Positions 23,641 through 55,028 of a stretch of 64,000 nt of DNA are shown here, in pieces. The notes under the pieces are model-generated. The model was not told the origin of the DNA. It did no database searches and saw only the letters and a program-made list of their open reading frames with translations. Position numbers and translations under genes: made by a program. Within the stretch, counting starts at the first letter, position 1; each line of letters opens with the position of its first letter. Source of the stretch: Anaerolinea sp. (GTDB taxonomy: Bacteria > Chloroflexota > Anaerolineae > Anaerolineales > Villigracilaceae); NCBI GenBank assembly GCA_020723805.1, contig DYID01000009.1, positions 62,001 to 126,000 on the forward strand, written 5' to 3'.

Positions 23641-23690
23641 CCCTTAACTTTACGGAAAGTGGAAAGCAGCGGGTAAAATCCAATTGCGGC

Positions 23691-23802
23691 TTTCCACTTT
23701 CCACTTTTCACCCTCCACTTTCCACCCTCCACTTTCCACTTTTTACTTTCCAACCTCCACTTCCCACTTTCTACTTTCCACCTCCCACTTTCTTCTTCCT
23801 TC
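23691..23802. repeat. Sixteen-unit pyrimidine heptad array
   Basis: About sixteen consecutive 7-bp units of the type TTTCCAC, CCTCCAC, TTTTCAC, TTCCCAC, TTTCTAC. A complementary GGAAAGTGGAAAG stands at 23654-23666, so the transcript can fold back. The pyrimidine run continues into the start of the next gene. Confidence 0.9.
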
Positions 23803-24455: not shown

Positions 24456-24836
24456 ATGATCGAGAAGACTGATAGAAGTGGAAAAGGTTTCCGTAAGTTG
24501 ATTGTGTGGCAAAGGGCGCACCAGTTGGTTTTGCAAGTTTATAAACTCACCGAAAAATTTCCTAAGCATGAAATGTTTGGATTGACAAGTCAATTAAGGC
24601 GGGCGGTAGTTTCTGTCTCTGCGAACGTGGCGGAGGGTTACGCGGCAGGTGGAAAGGGACAATTCAAGCGTTATCTTGATATCGCACAAGGCTCATTGGC
24701 AGAAGCGGAATATTACCTGATCCTTGCACAGGACCTGAATTACATTACACCGTCTCAATACGAACAGGCAGAGACCCTGCGGGCGGAAACTGGCTTTCTG
24801 CTTCACCGTCTGCTCGAATCTCTTGACCGCAAATAA
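24456..24836 (+). CDS. Four-helix-bundle protein (S23/IVS-encoded family)
   Basis: 126 residues of the family first found as 23S rRNA intervening-sequence proteins: FRKLIVWQRAHQLVLQVYKL, FPKHEMFGLTSQLRRA, VSVSANVAEGYAAGGKGQF and a C-terminal helix ETGFLLHRLLESL. Family members form pentameric helical bundles of unknown role. AGGAGG precedes the ATG at good distance. It lies outside any rRNA gene here, as is common for stand-alone copies. Confidence 0.88.
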   Translation: MIEKTDRSGKGFRKLIVWQRAHQLVLQVYKLTEKFPKHEMFGLTSQLRRAVVSVSANVAEGYAAGGKGQFKRYLDIAQGSLAEAEYYLILAQDLNYITPSQYEQAETLRAETGFLLHRLLESLDRK

Positions 24837-24879
24837 AACCTTTGATCCTTTGGCTCTTTTGCAACATCTGGAGCATTTT

Positions 24880-26292
24880 ATGGCAACCATCCTCAAACAC
24901 GGCACCCTCCTCACCGCCTCTGAAACCTTTCAGGCAGACCTCCTCATCGAAGGCGAGACCATTGCCAAAATCGGCGCAGACCTCCAATACCCCAACGCCG
25001 AGGTCATTGACGCAACCGGCAAACTCATCCTGCCCGGCGGTGTGGACCCGCATGTGCACCTCGATTTGCCGATGTTCGGCACCGTTTCCTCCGACGACCA
25101 TTACACCGGTCACAAAGCCGCGGCGTTCGGCGGAACGACGACCGTTATGGACTTCGTCGTTTTGGAAGAGAAGGGCTTTCAATATTCGGTGGACATCTGG
25201 ATGAAGATGGCGGAAAAAGCCGCGATTGACTATTCCTTCCACATGAACCTGACGAAGTTCAACGCGGTGATTGCCAAGGAGATTCCGTCCCTGCGCGAAA
25301 TGGGGATTACCACGCTCAAAGTCTTCACCGCCTACAACGGACGCCTCCGCCTGGACGATGGCAGCATCTTCCGCGCCCTGCAAATCGCCCGCGACAACGG
25401 CATGTTGGTCATGGCACATTGCGAAAACGGCGATGTCATCGAAACGCTGACGGAGCAGGCATTAGCCGCCGGTCACACCACGCCCGAATGGCACGCATTG
25501 ACTCGTCCCGCCTGGGGGGCGGTGGAATCTCTTTTGCGGCTGGCAGGCATGGCGTCCGCGGCGGATGCGGCGGTGTACATTGTCCACATGAACACCGCCG
25601 GCGAAGTGGACATGCTCAAGTACGCGCGCGAACGCGGCGTCAAAGTGATGGGAGAGACGTGTCCGCAATATCTGTTCTTCACGGTTGATGATTTGCGTAG
25701 ACCCGACGGCGCAAAATGGATTTGCTCTCCGCCGATGCGCACGAAGGAGGATAATGCGCGGTTGTGGGAAGGGCTTTCGCAGGGGATTTTGCAGACCATC
25801 GGCACGGATCATTGCCCGTTCTTTTTTGACGGGACCAAGCCCATCGTCTATGAAGGACGCGAGGTCGCCATCCCCGGCAAAGAGTTGGGCAGGGACGACT
25901 TCACCAAAATCCCCAACGGTCTGCCGGGTATTCAGGACCGTATGCCCGTGCTGTGGACGACCGGCGTGCGCACAGGGAAAATCACGGCGAATCAGTTTGT
26001 GGCATACATGAGCACGAACCCCGCGAAGATTTTCGGTCTGTATCCGCGCAAGGGCGCCTTGCTCGAAGGCTCGGATGCCGATATTGTGATTTGGGACCCC
26101 GAAAAGAAGGTGAAGTATGGCGTGGCAATGTCGCACCAGCGCACAGACTATAACCTGTACGAAGACTGGGAATTGACCGGTTACCCCGAAAAGGTCTTCC
26201 TGCGCGGGCAGTTGATTGTGGATGGAAGCGAATGGAAAGGCAAACAGGGGATGGGACGGTTTTTGAAGAGAGGAGAGGGAGAGGTGATTTAA
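24880..26292 (+). CDS. hydA: Dihydropyrimidinase / D-hydantoinase
   Basis: Zinc amidohydrolase opening dihydrouracil, dihydrothymine or hydantoin rings. 470 residues, normal. Metal ligands visible: H58 and H60 in VDPHVHLD, carbamylated K147 in TTLKVFTAYNG, H180 in VMAHCENGD, H236 in YIVHMNTAG, D310 in GTDHCPF. Start at 24880 gives the normal N-terminus (MATILKHGTLLT); the frame extends upstream into the previous gene. No other pyrimidine-degradation gene is adjacent. Its stop codon and tail are copied downstream (26370-26398), around two palindromes. Confidence 0.9.
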   Translation: MATILKHGTLLTASETFQADLLIEGETIAKIGADLQYPNAEVIDATGKLILPGGVDPHVHLDLPMFGTVSSDDHYTGHKAAAFGGTTTVMDFVVLEEKGFQYSVDIWMKMAEKAAIDYSFHMNLTKFNAVIAKEIPSLREMGITTLKVFTAYNGRLRLDDGSIFRALQIARDNGMLVMAHCENGDVIETLTEQALAAGHTTPEWHALTRPAWGAVESLLRLAGMASAADAAVYIVHMNTAGEVDMLKYARERGVKVMGETCPQYLFFTVDDLRRPDGAKWICSPPMRTKEDNARLWEGLSQGILQTIGTDHCPFFFDGTKPIVYEGREVAIPGKELGRDDFTKIPNGLPGIQDRMPVLWTTGVRTGKITANQFVAYMSTNPAKIFGLYPRKGALLEGSDADIVIWDPEKKVKYGVAMSHQRTDYNLYEDWELTGYPEKVFLRGQLIVDGSEWKGKQGMGRFLKRGEGEVI

Positions 26293-26309
26293 GATTTGAT
26301 GTTACGCAC

Positions 26310-26363
26310 CGTCCCGAAGGTTTGGCTGGAAAACAGGCGCAATTTGCAAGAACCTTCGGGACG
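26310..26363. repeat. CGTCCCGAAGG palindrome after hydA
   Basis: Arms at 26310-26320 and 26353-26363, 32-bp centre; flanked on both sides by copies of the hydA 3' end. Confidence 0.85.
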
Positions 26364-26399
26364 TTTCGCGTAAGGTGAGTTAAGATTTGATGTTACGCG

Positions 26400-26449
26400 G
26401 TAGCGCGAGATTCATCTCGCGTTTTCAGGCGACATAAATGTCGCGCTAC
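26400..26449. repeat. GTAGCGCGA palindrome
   Basis: Compound inverted repeat: GCGAGATTCATCTCGC and GCGACATAAATGTCGC hairpins enclosed by GTAGCGC / GCGCTAC arms; REP-like. Confidence 0.8.
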
Positions 26450-26478
26450 GAAGGAACTGCGTAAGGTGAGTTAAGATC

Positions 26479-27513
26479 TCAAATGCGTCTTCCTCCCATG
26501 AAACCCGAAAGTTCCTGCTGGGCGTGCTCGATCATCCTCAGGCGGGATTCTTTTTTCAATCGGAATCCTGCTTCCTCCGCCACCGGTTGAAGGAGCAGGT
26601 AGAGCATCTCATCTTTCACCAGAACCTCCTTGGGCGGGAAACCCTCCGCCAGTTTCTCCACGACGACGGCGGGAACCTCCGACCACATGGCTTCCATGGA
26701 TGGAAGGGGAGTCAACATCTCAAAGCCCAGGATCATGCCGCTGTCATGATCTACCAGCATCAGCATGAAGGGGAAATACGGTCTTTCATTGGCTTTTTCC
26801 TGGACTGGCTCCATCATCATGTGCATGTCAATTTCCAACGTCAACTTTCCCGGCATCATTTTACGAAGATATTCGAGCGCTTCTTCGTTCATCATGAGAT
26901 CGAGCGTCACCTCCCGGTGGAAGGTGATGCGCTGGATGCTGTCTTCCCAAAGGTCGTTTTTCTTCACGCGCACGAGGTACTCATACTCGACATCGGTCGG
27001 TGTGAGCATATCGGGGTTTTCCTTGAAGCGCGGCGCCACATCCAGCAGCTGCTCCAGCGCACAGATCAGCATGTCAGCTTCATCCTTTTCGATATACCAG
27101 GGAAAATACCCGGGGCGGTAACTGCGGAAGAGGGGCCAAGCATTCGCGCCGCGGAACTTGAGTCCCAGTTGTTTCATCACCTCGCGGTCTGCCTTCTCAA
27201 CCATCTCGCGGTCTTCGAACGATGCCTGCACTTGCGGGATCTGCAGAACGAGTTCCGGCGGAGCGGCATAGCCCAGCGACTGGATGTTCCAGAACCCGCC
27301 CAATCCCTTTGCGCCCTGATAAACGGCAATAGCAAAATGCTCACCCAGCATCCCCATCACGCTGACGAAACCCTGTTCGCCCGTCTCGGGCATTTGGACG
27401 CCAAAGATGTCATCTTCCTGCATCCATTCCCATGGCGCAAGTTCCTTGACCTGCGCCATCAGATCGTACAACCTTTTCCACTCTTCAAGTGTGGGAGAAT
27501 TTTTTTTCGACAT
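26479..27513 (-). CDS. Conserved protein of the DUF7309/DUF6930 type
   Basis: 344 residues, soluble. The N-terminal half (TLEEWKRLYDLMAQVKELAP, DDIFGVQMPETGEQGFVSVM, GEHFAIAVYQGAKGLGGFW) resembles what I recall as DUF7309, and the C-terminal half (YFPFMLMLVDHDSGMILGFE, VEKLAEGFPPKEVLVKDEML) resembles DUF6930; names are from memory. No catalytic motif is evident. Its 5' end overlaps the 3' end of the acyltransferase gene by 29 bases, so it is translationally linked to it on the minus strand. Confidence 0.75.
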   Translation of the reverse strand: MSKKNSPTLEEWKRLYDLMAQVKELAPWEWMQEDDIFGVQMPETGEQGFVSVMGMLGEHFAIAVYQGAKGLGGFWNIQSLGYAAPPELVLQIPQVQASFEDREMVEKADREVMKQLGLKFRGANAWPLFRSYRPGYFPWYIEKDEADMLICALEQLLDVAPRFKENPDMLTPTDVEYEYLVRVKKNDLWEDSIQRITFHREVTLDLMMNEEALEYLRKMMPGKLTLEIDMHMMMEPVQEKANERPYFPFMLMLVDHDSGMILGFEMLTPLPSMEAMWSEVPAVVVEKLAEGFPPKEVLVKDEMLYLLLQPVAEEAGFRLKKESRLRMIEHAQQELSGFMGGRRI

Positions 27514-35320: not shown

Positions 35321-36376
35321 ATGGCAAAGATCAATTTTGGCGGCGTGGAAGAGGAAGTTGTGACGCGCGAGGAATTTTCGCTCGAAAGAGCGCGTGAGGT
35401 GTTGAAGAACGAGGTCGTGGCGGTGATCGGGTACGGCGTGCAGGGACCGGCGCAGGCGATGAACATGCGCGATAACGGCATCAACGTCATCGTCGGTCAG
35501 CGCGCCGGCACGAAGAATTGGGAGAAGGCGCTGGCAGACGGCTGGGTGCCGGGCGAGACGCTCTTTTCCATCGAAGAAGCCGCCGAACGCGGCACGATTG
35601 TCCAGTATCTGCTTTCGGATGCCGGTCAGCGCAGTCAGTGGAGCAGGATTGTGGAATGCCTGAACGAAGGCGATATGCTCTACTTCTCGCACGGTTTTTC
35701 TGTGACGTACAAAGAGGATACCGGCGTCGTCCCGCCGCCGAACGTGGACGTGGCGCTGGTGGCGCCCAAAGGTTCCGGCACGAGCGTGCGGCGTAACTTC
35801 CTGGCGGGAAGCGGCATCAATGCCAGTTTCGCCGTTCACCAGGATTACACCGGGCGGGCATGGGAGCGGACGGTCGCGCTCGGCATTGCCATTGGCGCGG
35901 GCTATCTCTTCCCGACCACCTTCCAAAACGAGGTGTTCAGCGATTTGACCGGCGAGCGCGGCGTCTTGATGGGCGCACTGGCGGGCGTGATGGAAGCGCA
36001 GTACAACGAACTCCGCAAGCATGGTCACAGCCCCAGCGAAGCGTTCAACGAGACAGTGGAGGAACTCACCCAGTCGCTCATCCGCCTGGTGGGCGAAAAC
36101 GGCATGGACTGGATGTATGCCAACTGTTCCACCACTGCCCAGCGCGGCGCGCTCGATTGGAAGAACCGCTTCCGCGACGCGGTGGCGCCGGTCTTCGAGG
36201 AACTCTATGAGCGCGTCGCCGACGGCACGGAAGCCCGCATTACCCTGGAAGCCAACTCCCGCCCCGATTACCGCGAACAACTCGAAAAGGAACTGGCGGA
36301 AATGCGCAATTCGGAAATGTGGCAAGCCGGCGCGGCGGTGCGGGCGCTGCGACCGGAGAATTGGAAGATACAGTAA
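35321..36376 (+). CDS. ilvC: Ketol-acid reductoisomerase
   Basis: Isomerises and reduces acetolactate/acetohydroxybutyrate with NAD(P)H and Mg. 351 residues, class I. Seen: dinucleotide fold VIGYGVQGPAQAMNMRDNGI; metal/active-site region PKGSGTSVRR, AIGAGYLFPTTFQNEVFSDL (acidic ligand), GVMEAQYNELRKHGHSPSEA. The N-terminal motif NMRDNGINVIVGQR resembles the form found in eukaryotes and Bacteroidota more than the short actinobacterial form. Start at 35321 with AAGGAGAG; the stop lies inside a CAGTGAG heptad array. Confidence 0.94.
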   Translation: MAKINFGGVEEEVVTREEFSLERAREVLKNEVVAVIGYGVQGPAQAMNMRDNGINVIVGQRAGTKNWEKALADGWVPGETLFSIEEAAERGTIVQYLLSDAGQRSQWSRIVECLNEGDMLYFSHGFSVTYKEDTGVVPPPNVDVALVAPKGSGTSVRRNFLAGSGINASFAVHQDYTGRAWERTVALGIAIGAGYLFPTTFQNEVFSDLTGERGVLMGALAGVMEAQYNELRKHGHSPSEAFNETVEELTQSLIRLVGENGMDWMYANCSTTAQRGALDWKNRFRDAVAPVFEELYERVADGTEARITLEANSRPDYREQLEKELAEMRNSEMWQAGAAVRALRPENWKIQ

Positions 36377-36412
36377 TCAGTGAGCAGTGATCAGTGAGCA
36401 GTGAGCAGTGAC
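36371..36412. repeat. Heptad array over the ilvC stop codon
   Basis: CAGTAAT (with the ilvC stop), CAGTGAG, CAGTGAT, CAGTGAG, CAGTGAG, CAGTGAC: six units in register. Confidence 0.9.
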
Positions 36413-53803: not shown

Positions 53804-54982
53804 ATGAAGAAGATCAATTTACTTTTGTTGACTGCATTGGCTCTGCTCCTCTCCGCCTGCGGTTCATCCGCGACACCGACGCCCATTCCCACCCTTGTGT
53901 TGGGAGGCGGCGATGTCACCCCCGCGCCTCGTCCCGTTTCCAGCGCAGGCAATATTATCGCTTCGGCGGTCCTCGTCCCAGCGCAGGAGGCGCATCTGGC
54001 TTTCGCCGCCGGCGGGACTGTGCTCAAGGTCAATGCCAAAGTGGGAGACCGGGTCACAGCCGGATTCATCCTGGTGGAACTGGACGACACCCTCGCCCGG
54101 CTGGAAGTGGAACGTGCCCAGCGCGTCCTGCGTGAACTGACCTCGCCCGCCGCCGTTGCTGCGGCGGAACAGGCTGTGGCAAACGCCCAGGAAGCCTACG
54201 ACGAAGCCAAGAAGAAAGCCGACAGCCTCAACCGCCGTTTTGCCGACAATGTCACCCTTGACTATCTCGAAGCGCAGGTCACTTTGGCACAGCAGGCTTT
54301 GGATTTTGCGCGGGAGGCATACAACCGCACGCGCGGACTTTCTTCCGCCGACCCTGCGCGGGCGAAAGCCGCCACCGACCTCTACAACGCGCAAAAGGCA
54401 TACAACACCGCTCTGGCAAACCTCAACTGGTTTACCGAAAAACCATCCGATACCGAAGTCGCCCGCATCACAGCCGACCTCAATGCCGCTTCCGCCGCTT
54501 TGCAGGAGGCGAAGTGGTATCTTGCCGAGTTGAAGGGCGAAGCCGTTCCAGCAGAAGCCAGCGGGGCGCAACTTGCCCAACTTCAGCAGGCACGCGCCGA
54601 CCTGCAAGCCGCACAGACGCGCCTTGCCCAAACCCGCCTCGTCGCCCCCATTGACGGCACGGTGGCGCAGGTGAATGTGATTGCCGGCGAGTATGCCGCG
54701 CCGGGCAAAGTGTTGATCGTCCTCAGCAACGTGGATCGGTTGCAGGTCAAGACCACCGACCTGAGCGAGCGCGATGTCACGAAGGTCAAAGTGGGCGATC
54801 CGGCGGTCATCCTTGTTGATGCACTCAATCAGGAATTCGGCGGCACGGTCATCAGCATTTCGCCGCTGGCGTCCATGCTCGGCGGGGACGTGGTGTACGA
54901 GGTCACGCTTGCCTTCGATGAACAACCCTCCGGCGCCCTTGCCGGCATGACGGCGGATGTGACGTTTGGGGAGGGGGAATAG
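53804..54982 (+). CDS. Membrane-fusion adaptor lipoprotein (HlyD/MacA type)
   Basis: 392 residues. Lipoprotein signal LLLLTALALLLSACGSS; lipoyl-type half (HLAFAAGGTVLKVNAKVGDR, VTAGFILVELDD); a long coiled-coil hairpin (about 110-265); second lipoyl half (APIDGTVAQVNVIAGEYAAP) and a beta domain (VKVGDPAVILVDALNQEFGG). In a single-membrane or atypical envelope it may guide the substrate away from the permeases, not connect to a TolC. The stop is in the TAGTTAG heptad. Confidence 0.9.
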   Translation: MKKINLLLLTALALLLSACGSSATPTPIPTLVLGGGDVTPAPRPVSSAGNIIASAVLVPAQEAHLAFAAGGTVLKVNAKVGDRVTAGFILVELDDTLARLEVERAQRVLRELTSPAAVAAAEQAVANAQEAYDEAKKKADSLNRRFADNVTLDYLEAQVTLAQQALDFAREAYNRTRGLSSADPARAKAATDLYNAQKAYNTALANLNWFTEKPSDTEVARITADLNAASAALQEAKWYLAELKGEAVPAEASGAQLAQLQQARADLQAAQTRLAQTRLVAPIDGTVAQVNVIAGEYAAPGKVLIVLSNVDRLQVKTTDLSERDVTKVKVGDPAVILVDALNQEFGGTVISISPLASMLGGDVVYEVTLAFDEQPSGALAGMTADVTFGEGE

Positions 54983-55028
54983 TTAGTGATCAGTGATCGG
55001 TAATCAGCGATTGGTAATTGGTAATTGC
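54980..55028. repeat. Heptad array over the adaptor stop codon
   Basis: TAGTTAG (with the stop), TGATCAG, TGATCGG, TAATCAG, CGATTGG, TAATTGG, TAATTGC: seven units in register. Confidence 0.88.

What the first reader, a model, noticed from the sequence alone, without database searches (positions are those of the whole stretch)
26282..26478. Two different palindromes each bracketed by copies of the hydA 3' end, at an exact 91-bp period
Copies at 26282/26373 and 26368/26459 are both 91 bp apart, although the palindromes between them are unrelated in sequence. This is a second locus where palindromes are flanked by direct repeats taken from the upstream gene end. It supports the view that such palindromes move and duplicate the target, or replace each other in a tandem unit.
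Basis: seen in the sequence. Interest (0 to 1): 0.68.

Follow-up and report, generated by a model that had tools for sequence, protein, structure and literature searches.

The report
Two mobile palindromes sharing one target
Two short, gene-less mobile DNA elements landed one after the other in the same seven-base spot at the end of a gene, which explains the regular 91-base repeats; it is an ordinary kind of bacterial mobile element, in a family for which a probable parent transposon was found in relatives.

Summary
The repeats are real and are explained. Positions 26296-26379 (E1) and 26387-26470 (E2) are two 84-bp MITEs with unrelated palindromic cores but the same 12-bp ends (TTGATGTTACGC...GCGTAAGGTGAG). 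They form TTAAGAT-E1-TTAAGAT-E2-TTAAGAT. Element (84) plus target duplication (7) gives the 91-bp period. Only TTAAGAT, which holds the hydA stop codon, is duplicated host DNA. The rest of the "hydA 3' end copies" is element terminus plus a chance likeness to the last hydA codons. In this genome 59 of 129 end-pairs examined have an exact 7-bp duplication at the predicted edges (shuffled mean 1.5). Four relatives with the same gene pair have no element there. Seven sites hold such chains, and one further doublet seems to have moved as a 175-bp unit. The assembly has no detectable transposase of the kind, but genomes of the same order, Thiothrix and Piscirickettsia carry ~1.1-kb IS with the same ends. 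Seven of 11 such copies have exact 7-8-bp duplications; three transposases tested belong to NCBIfam IS701_2 and show a YREK signature. The chain is best read as sequential insertion into one preferred target (about TTANTAA), which alone predicts enough re-insertions. Known kind; I found no description of the family.

The parts
24823..26292 (+). hydA, D-hydantoinase/dihydropyrimidinase; stop codon 26290-26292 lies in the first target repeat
   Evidence: ORF; TIGR02033 521 bits against a cut-off of 393
26289..26295 (.). target repeat 1, TTAAGAT (host DNA, includes the hydA TAA stop)
   Evidence: sequence; exact 7-bp duplication (locus L079)
26296..26379 (+). E1, 84-bp class-A MITE, core GTCCCGAAGGTT...AACCTTCGGGAC
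   Evidence: 35 class-A copies of 84 bp; hairpin -23.8 kcal/mol
26296..26307 (+). left end of E1, TTGATGTTACGC
   Evidence: 93 left-end matches genome-wide at up to 1 mismatch, control 6
26368..26379 (+). right end of E1, GCGTAAGGTGAG
   Evidence: 183 matches of GCGTAAGGTGAGTTA genome-wide at up to 2 mismatches, control 3
26380..26386 (.). target repeat 2, TTAAGAT, shared by E1 and E2
26387..26470 (+). E2, 84-bp class-B MITE, core GTAGCGCGAGAT...GCGACAT...GCGCTAC
   Evidence: 26387-26474 is 100% identical to G000:C31:66056-66143; 37 class-B copies of 84 bp; hairpins -20.1 kcal/mol
26471..26477 (.). target repeat 3, TTAAGAT
26479..27513 (-). convergent ORF of unknown function, used as the synteny marker for the empty site
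   Evidence: ORF; no NCBIfam match; 68-76% identical orthologues next to hydA in G001, G007, G005, G012

Best explanation
E1 and E2 are two non-autonomous miniature transposons (MITEs) of one terminus family. A DDE transposase of an IS701_2-type insertion sequence recognised their shared 12-13-bp inverted ends (CTSAYSTTACGC) and inserted them with a 7-bp staggered cut at an AT-rich target close to TTANTAA. One element entered TTAAGAT at the hydA stop codon and duplicated it. The other then entered one of the two TTAAGAT copies, giving target-E1-target-E2-target and a period of 84+7=91 bp. The order of arrival is unknown. Shown: boundaries, duplication, genome-wide copies, syntenic sites without the element, and same-ended IS with transposase in genomes of the same order and in another phylum. 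Inferred: mobilisation in trans by that transposase, sequential rather than joint arrival here, and loss or non-assembly of the IS in this genome.
For: 129 end-pairs from 120 loci: 59 exact 7-bp duplications at the predicted edges, null mean 1.5; 72 of 129 are 84 bp long. Both core classes show it: exact duplications in 14 of 43 class A and 44 of 84 class B. Nine adjacent pairs lie exactly 7 bp apart, 7 of them A next to B; at seven sites all three heptamers agree within one mismatch per element. Syntenic gene pair without the element in four relatives. Eleven IS copies of 1102-1148 bp with the same ends; 7 of 11 have exact 7- or 8-bp duplications, the seven all AT-rich. Three transposases score 352-355 bits against NF049921 IS701_2, cut-off 250. 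Some MITE and IS ends agree beyond 12 bp: class-B CTCACCTTACGCAGTTTT equals the left end of the IS in L209. A target-weighted model expects 1.7-18.7 re-insertions.
Against: No such transposase gene in this genome's assembly, even at E 10, so the link to the IS rests on other genomes. 70 of 129 end-pairs lack an exact 7-bp duplication; some are old, some probably spurious pairs. Four of the 11 IS copies lack an exact duplication, and four of the seven that have one show 8 bp, not 7. The IS are cut off at contig ends in many genomes, so intact ends were seen in few. Only 4 of the 12 other genomes tested keep the neighbouring gene, so the empty site rests on four, and they are species apart from this one. 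Within the window alone the loose end patterns (2 matches each) do not exceed chance; the case rests on the genome-wide copies.
Confidence: 0.88

Rival explanations
1. The doublet arrived as one composite unit (E1-TTAAGAT-E2, 175 bp) that had been assembled elsewhere.
For: Such a move is visible once: L057 carries B-TTACTCA-A (175 bp, identical to L001) between its own repeats TTATATC, while L001 has TTACTCA three times.
Against: Here the inner and both outer repeats are all TTAAGAT, as expected for re-insertion into the same site. A composite arriving from elsewhere would as a rule carry a different inner heptamer, as in L057.
Confidence: 0.1
2. A tandem array formed by unequal recombination or slippage, with the core of one unit later replaced by another palindrome.
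For: Seven of nine adjacent pairs are A next to B, which could come from core exchange.
Against: Both classes occur alone with their own 7-bp duplications elsewhere in the genome. The target-preference model predicts enough independent re-insertions. Like-like tandems would be expected to be lost by recombination or merged in assembly, which also leaves mostly A-B pairs (inference).
Confidence: 0.07
3. Repetitive extragenic palindromes moved by a Y1 (RAYT/IS200-type) single-strand transposase, the flanking repeats being incidental.
For: Small size and strong hairpins.
Against: IS200/IS605-type movement leaves no direct repeats (PMC8944449, passages seen; also recalled); here the 7-bp duplication is exact and the ends are inverted. 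The same-ended full-size IS encode a DDE transposase.
Confidence: 0.02

Closest known systems
Bacterial MITEs mobilised by a co-resident IS, e.g. MITEAba12/ISAba12 (PMC6382973; abstract and passages seen)
   Same: Short, no gene, ends shared with a full-size IS, fixed-length target duplication in part of the copies (40% there; 59 of 129 end-pairs here), AT-rich targets.
   Different: 9-bp duplication and a resident IS there. Here there are several unrelated palindromic cores behind one set of ends, no resident IS in the assembly, and chains sharing one target repeat.
IS701 family, NCBIfam IS701_2 (NF049921); IS701 as defined in PMC2266710 (passages seen)
   Same: Transposase above the NF049921 cut-off; DDE_5 (PF13546) match.
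   Different: PMC2266710 gives IS701 as 1400-1550 bp, ends ---YACT-Y--YR, 4 bp duplicated. These IS are about 1.1 kb, end in CTSAYSTTACGCA and duplicate 7-8 bp. Longer duplications (4-9 bp) are reported for ISGka1/ISGka2 of IS701 (PMC8024623, passages seen).
ISPepr1 subgroup of the IS4 family (PMC2266710, passages seen)
   Same: 7-8 bp duplication, ends starting CT with a partly similar pattern (YT-AA-YTT---A), YREK signature.
   Different: IS 1500-1600 bp there; two of the conserved end positions differ; the NCBIfam IS4 models score below their cut-offs for these transposases.
REP / GTAG- and CGTC-tagged palindromes (PMC3733652, search listings only)
   Same: Small palindromes in many copies per genome.
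   Different: These have inverted ends plus target duplications, and carry the palindrome inside.

Membership tests
MITE (non-autonomous DDE transposon) | no transposase gene, under a few hundred bp | tested here: met
   84 bp each; 72 of 129 end-pairs are 84 bp
MITE (non-autonomous DDE transposon) | terminal inverted repeats | tested here: met
   CTGATGTTACGC / CTCACCTTACGC at the two ends; imperfect at positions 3, 5 and 6 when the two kinds face each other
MITE (non-autonomous DDE transposon) | fixed-length target duplication | tested here: met
   59 of 129 exact 7-bp; null mean 1.5
MITE (non-autonomous DDE transposon) | ends shared with an autonomous IS | tested here: met
   11 IS copies: L209, L211, L213, L221, L222, L224, L225, L227, L231, L267, L268, none of them in this genome
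MITE (non-autonomous DDE transposon) | transposition in trans demonstrated | not testable with these tools
   needs an assay
IS701 family (parent IS) | transposase above the curated IS701_2 cut-off | tested here: met
   351.8-355.3 bits, cut-off 250, 3 of 3 proteins
IS701 family (parent IS) | 4-bp duplication, YREK tyrosine mostly absent (PMC2266710) | tested here: not met
   7-8 bp in 7 of 11 copies, none exact in 4; Y-2-R-3-E-6-K is readable in P0001-P0003 (spacing recalled)
ISPepr1 subgroup of IS4 (parent IS) | 7-8 bp duplication, CT ends, YREK | tested here: met
ISPepr1 subgroup of IS4 (parent IS) | assignment by an IS4-family model | tested here: not met
   NF049925 99.6-106.5 bits against a cut-off of 250; the other IS4 models are lower
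REP/RAYT, IS200/IS605-type | no target duplication | tested here: not met
   exact 7-bp duplications

The most novel reading that the evidence does not exclude
One set of transposase ends has been fitted with several unrelated palindromic cargos (at least A, B and a rarer C). The elements pile up by re-insertion in one heptamer that often contains a stop codon, and finished doublets can then move as a single composite. Cargo palindromes would thus be collected and spread as hairpin cassettes at gene ends, where the duplication regenerates the stop codon and the inserted hairpin could act on the 3' end of the transcript.
Probability: 0.2. Interest if true: 0.55.

Novelty: new member of a known kind. 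Interest (0 to 1): 0.36.

Why it matters
It turns a puzzling repeat into a clean case: period, boundaries and target follow from one rule. It ties several abundant palindromes of one bacterial family (probably within Anaerolineales or close to it) to a shared set of transposon ends, and points to a group of short IS701_2 elements that does not fit the published IS701 description (4-bp duplication). The chains, and the one doublet that seems to have moved as a unit, give a small natural test of target preference and composite movement in bacterial MITEs.

Tried and rejected
Parent sought among DDE_Tnp_1 (PF01609) genes of this genome: five matches, none with convincing ends. An IS4-like IS of G024 (13 matches of its tail) seemed to carry the end CTCACCTTACG, but its own end is CTATCTATTACCC and the match was a neighbouring fragment: rejected. 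Complete or nearly complete relatives G011, G015, G025 hold few ends (5, 3 and 2 matches, controls 2, 2 and 4); no parent sought further there. A search for ends followed by unusual bases in eight genomes gave mostly further short elements. Covariation of the palindrome arms: class A (41 distinct sequences) and class B (37) each show one compensatory change; the arms are nearly invariant, so this is uninformative; 40 of 81 class-A strings, mostly the opposite-strand reading of the same copies, were dropped before that count. Rfam: no match in 26200-26560; no intrinsic-terminator-like site in 26150-26600. Stop-codon targeting: a first comparison gave p 0.0009 with unlike tests for sites and controls; with the same test it is 29 of 70 sites against 8 of 42 non-coding control heptamers of the window, odds ratio 3.0, p 0.022. 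Suggestive only: crude gene calls, control from one window. Seven paper searches listed nothing that by title or abstract start describes this family; the library holds open-licence papers only, and ISfinder was not available.

Full report
What is there. The two direct-repeat pairs and the 91-bp period are in the sequence. Read with the genome-wide copies, the stretch parses as TTAAGAT (26289-26295), element E1 (26296-26379), TTAAGAT (26380-26386), element E2 (26387-26470), TTAAGAT (26471-26477). Both elements are 84 bp and have the same ends, TTGATGTTACGC on the left and GCGTAAGGTGAG on the right. Hence 84+7=91. The hydA stop codon TAA (26290-26292) lies in the first heptamer. hydA scores as a D-hydantoinase (TIGR02033).

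The 26-bp pair is made of TTAAGAT, the left end of each element (TTGATGTTACGC), and AGGTGA before the heptamer. In the second copy AGGTGA belongs to the right end of E1; in the first it is hydA coding sequence. Relatives keep hydA codons there (G001 ends in GEGVVL, G007 in GEGEVL, this genome in GEGEVI). Among 70 insertion sites the upstream hexamer matches GGTGAG at 5 or 6 of 6 bases in two, this site (5 of 6) and L078; on the downstream side in two, L053 and L094. At L078 and L094 a neighbouring element really ends there. I take the likeness at hydA as chance.

Genome-wide test. The window is part of G000 (3.69 Mb, 54 contigs). GCGTAAGGTGAGTTA with up to 2 mismatches has 183 matches against 3 for the reversed pattern; TTGATGTTACGC with up to 1 mismatch has 93 against 6. 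Inside the window alone the loose patterns have 2 matches each, not beyond chance. The tool listed 100 of the 183 right ends. From these and the left-end list I planned 125 regions and fetched 120. Allowing 2 mismatches in each end, 129 left-right pairs 53-202 bp long were found. 72 are exactly 84 bp. 59 have an exact duplication of 7 bp; counts for other lengths are 9 (8 bp), 2 (6 bp), 0 (5 bp) and 9 (3 bp). Pairing flanks at random gives a mean of 1.5 and a maximum of 4 in 200 trials. Pairs made by chance or by decay are included in the 129.

Classes. By core, 43 pairs are class A (GTCCCGAAGG palindrome, as E1), 84 class B (GCGAGAT/GCGACAT palindrome, as E2) and 2 other. One of the two, L015, has a third core, GTGCGACGCA, with an exact duplication; a like core is seen at L101 and L119. 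Exact duplications: A 14 of 43, B 44 of 84, other 1 of 2. The heptamer consensus is close to TTANTAA.

Chains. Nine neighbouring pairs are separated by exactly 7 bp: L001, L025, L050, L057, L063, L074, L078, L079 (this locus) and L092; seven are A beside B and two B beside B. In L078 the left element is truncated, and in L057 the inner heptamer differs from the outer ones. In the other seven all three heptamers agree within one mismatch per element: with that rule 77 pairs reduce to 70 sites, 7 of them chains. L094 looks like a further chain whose left member has a decayed end. A target-weighted model gives 1.7-3.7 expected re-insertions if the whole genome is available and 8.7-18.7 if only non-coding DNA and gene ends survive, for 130 or 190 elements. 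So seven to nine chains need no special mechanism.

One composite move. L001 (reverse strand) has TTACTCA-B-TTACTCA-A-TTACTCA. L057 has TTATATC-B-TTACTCA-A-TTATATC. The B-TTACTCA-A unit of 175 bp is identical in both, including a variant end CTGATGTTAAGC. The simplest reading is that a doublet built at one site was later moved as a unit. It is a single case.

Empty site. A hydA search in 41 genomes gave 30 loci. For 12 genomes other than this one I looked for the convergent neighbour ORF (26479-27513). Four keep it next to hydA (G001, G007, G005, G012; 68-76% identity), and neither E1 nor E2 is seen after their hydA stop. In the other eight the ORF was not found in the locus held, and they say nothing.

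Distribution. The 197-bp query finds matches in 26 of 61 genomes: 26 of 37 of the same GTDB family (this genome included) and 0 of 24 of other families. Two named records hold an exact 27-base class-A stretch: an Anaerolineales bacterium MAG and a Chloroflexi bacterium MAG.

Parent IS. Contig ends of G012 and G039 run from a CTCACCTTACGC end into the tail of a reading frame whose stop codon lies in the end itself. That tail led to 29 of 400 genomes of the order. Of the 30 loci returned, nine hold a frame of 304-367 codons between paired ends 1102-1147 bp apart (L209, L211, L213, L221, L222, L224, L225, L227, L231); many of the others are cut at contig ends. Relatives of the transposase on plasmids of Piscirickettsia salmonis (L267, 1148 bp) and Thiothrix unzii (L268, 1108 bp) have the same ends. 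Of these 11 copies, L209, L225 and L267 have exact 7-bp and L211, L222, L227 and L231 exact 8-bp duplications; L213, L221, L224 and L268 have none that is exact. Ends are of the CTCACCTTACGC kind on both sides in some and of the CTGATGTTACGCA kind on both sides in others, with mixed cases (L213, L222); the MITEs often carry one of each. Three transposases (352, 357, 360 aa) score 352-355 bits against NF049921 IS701_2 (cut-off 250) and match DDE_5 and DDE_Tnp_1. All three show Y-2-R-3-E-6-K (spacing recalled). In PMC2266710 (passages seen) IS701 is 1400-1550 bp with 4-bp duplications, and the ISPepr1 subgroup of IS4 has 7-8 bp duplications and YREK. So the IS group fits IS701 by model and ISPepr1 by duplication and signature. 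PMC8024623 (passages seen) reports 4-9 bp for two IS701 elements.

No transposase of this kind was found in the G000 assembly (E up to 10; with fragments). Multi-copy IS end contigs in several of these genomes, so it may be lost or just unassembled.

Function. Nothing here shows a role for the host. Elements fold as hairpins, but there is no intrinsic-terminator-like site, no Rfam match and no informative covariation. The tendency to sit on stop codons (29 of 70 sites against 8 of 42 control heptamers, p 0.022) may follow from the TTANTAA target and from selection against hits inside genes.

Verdict. Mobility and target duplication are right; the extent and origin of the repeats were misread. 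The thing is a new member of a known kind.

Noticed in passing
class-B copies such as L012, L025, L092, L100; 103-bp class, 19 end-pairs: Further palindromes sit at the tips of the class-B hairpins: a 19-bp CCCC..GGGG insert in one tip and a 23- or 47-bp CCCTGAGC..GCCGAAGGG insert in the other. Palindromes nested in palindrome tips.
   Followed up: partly
L088, L089, L045 (ends of G000 contigs C40, C41, C13): Class-B cores break near GCGACAT into another repeat (TTGCACTTTTCC... or a similar one) at contig ends; another mobile element seems to enter the palindrome centre.
   Followed up: no
L015, L101, L119: A third core, GTGCGACGCA-like, behind the same ends.
   Followed up: partly
G024, 13 matches (e.g. 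L192, L194, L196, L198, L201 at contig starts): A multi-copy IS4-like IS with end CTATCTATTACCC.
   Followed up: no
L228 (G019:C13): An ORF that reads like a reverse transcriptase (YVDD motif) near an IS fragment; by eye only.
   Followed up: no
window 23679-23797; 36371-36405; 54977-55011: Heptamer-based tandem repeats (TCCACTT-like; CAGTGAT-like).
   Followed up: no
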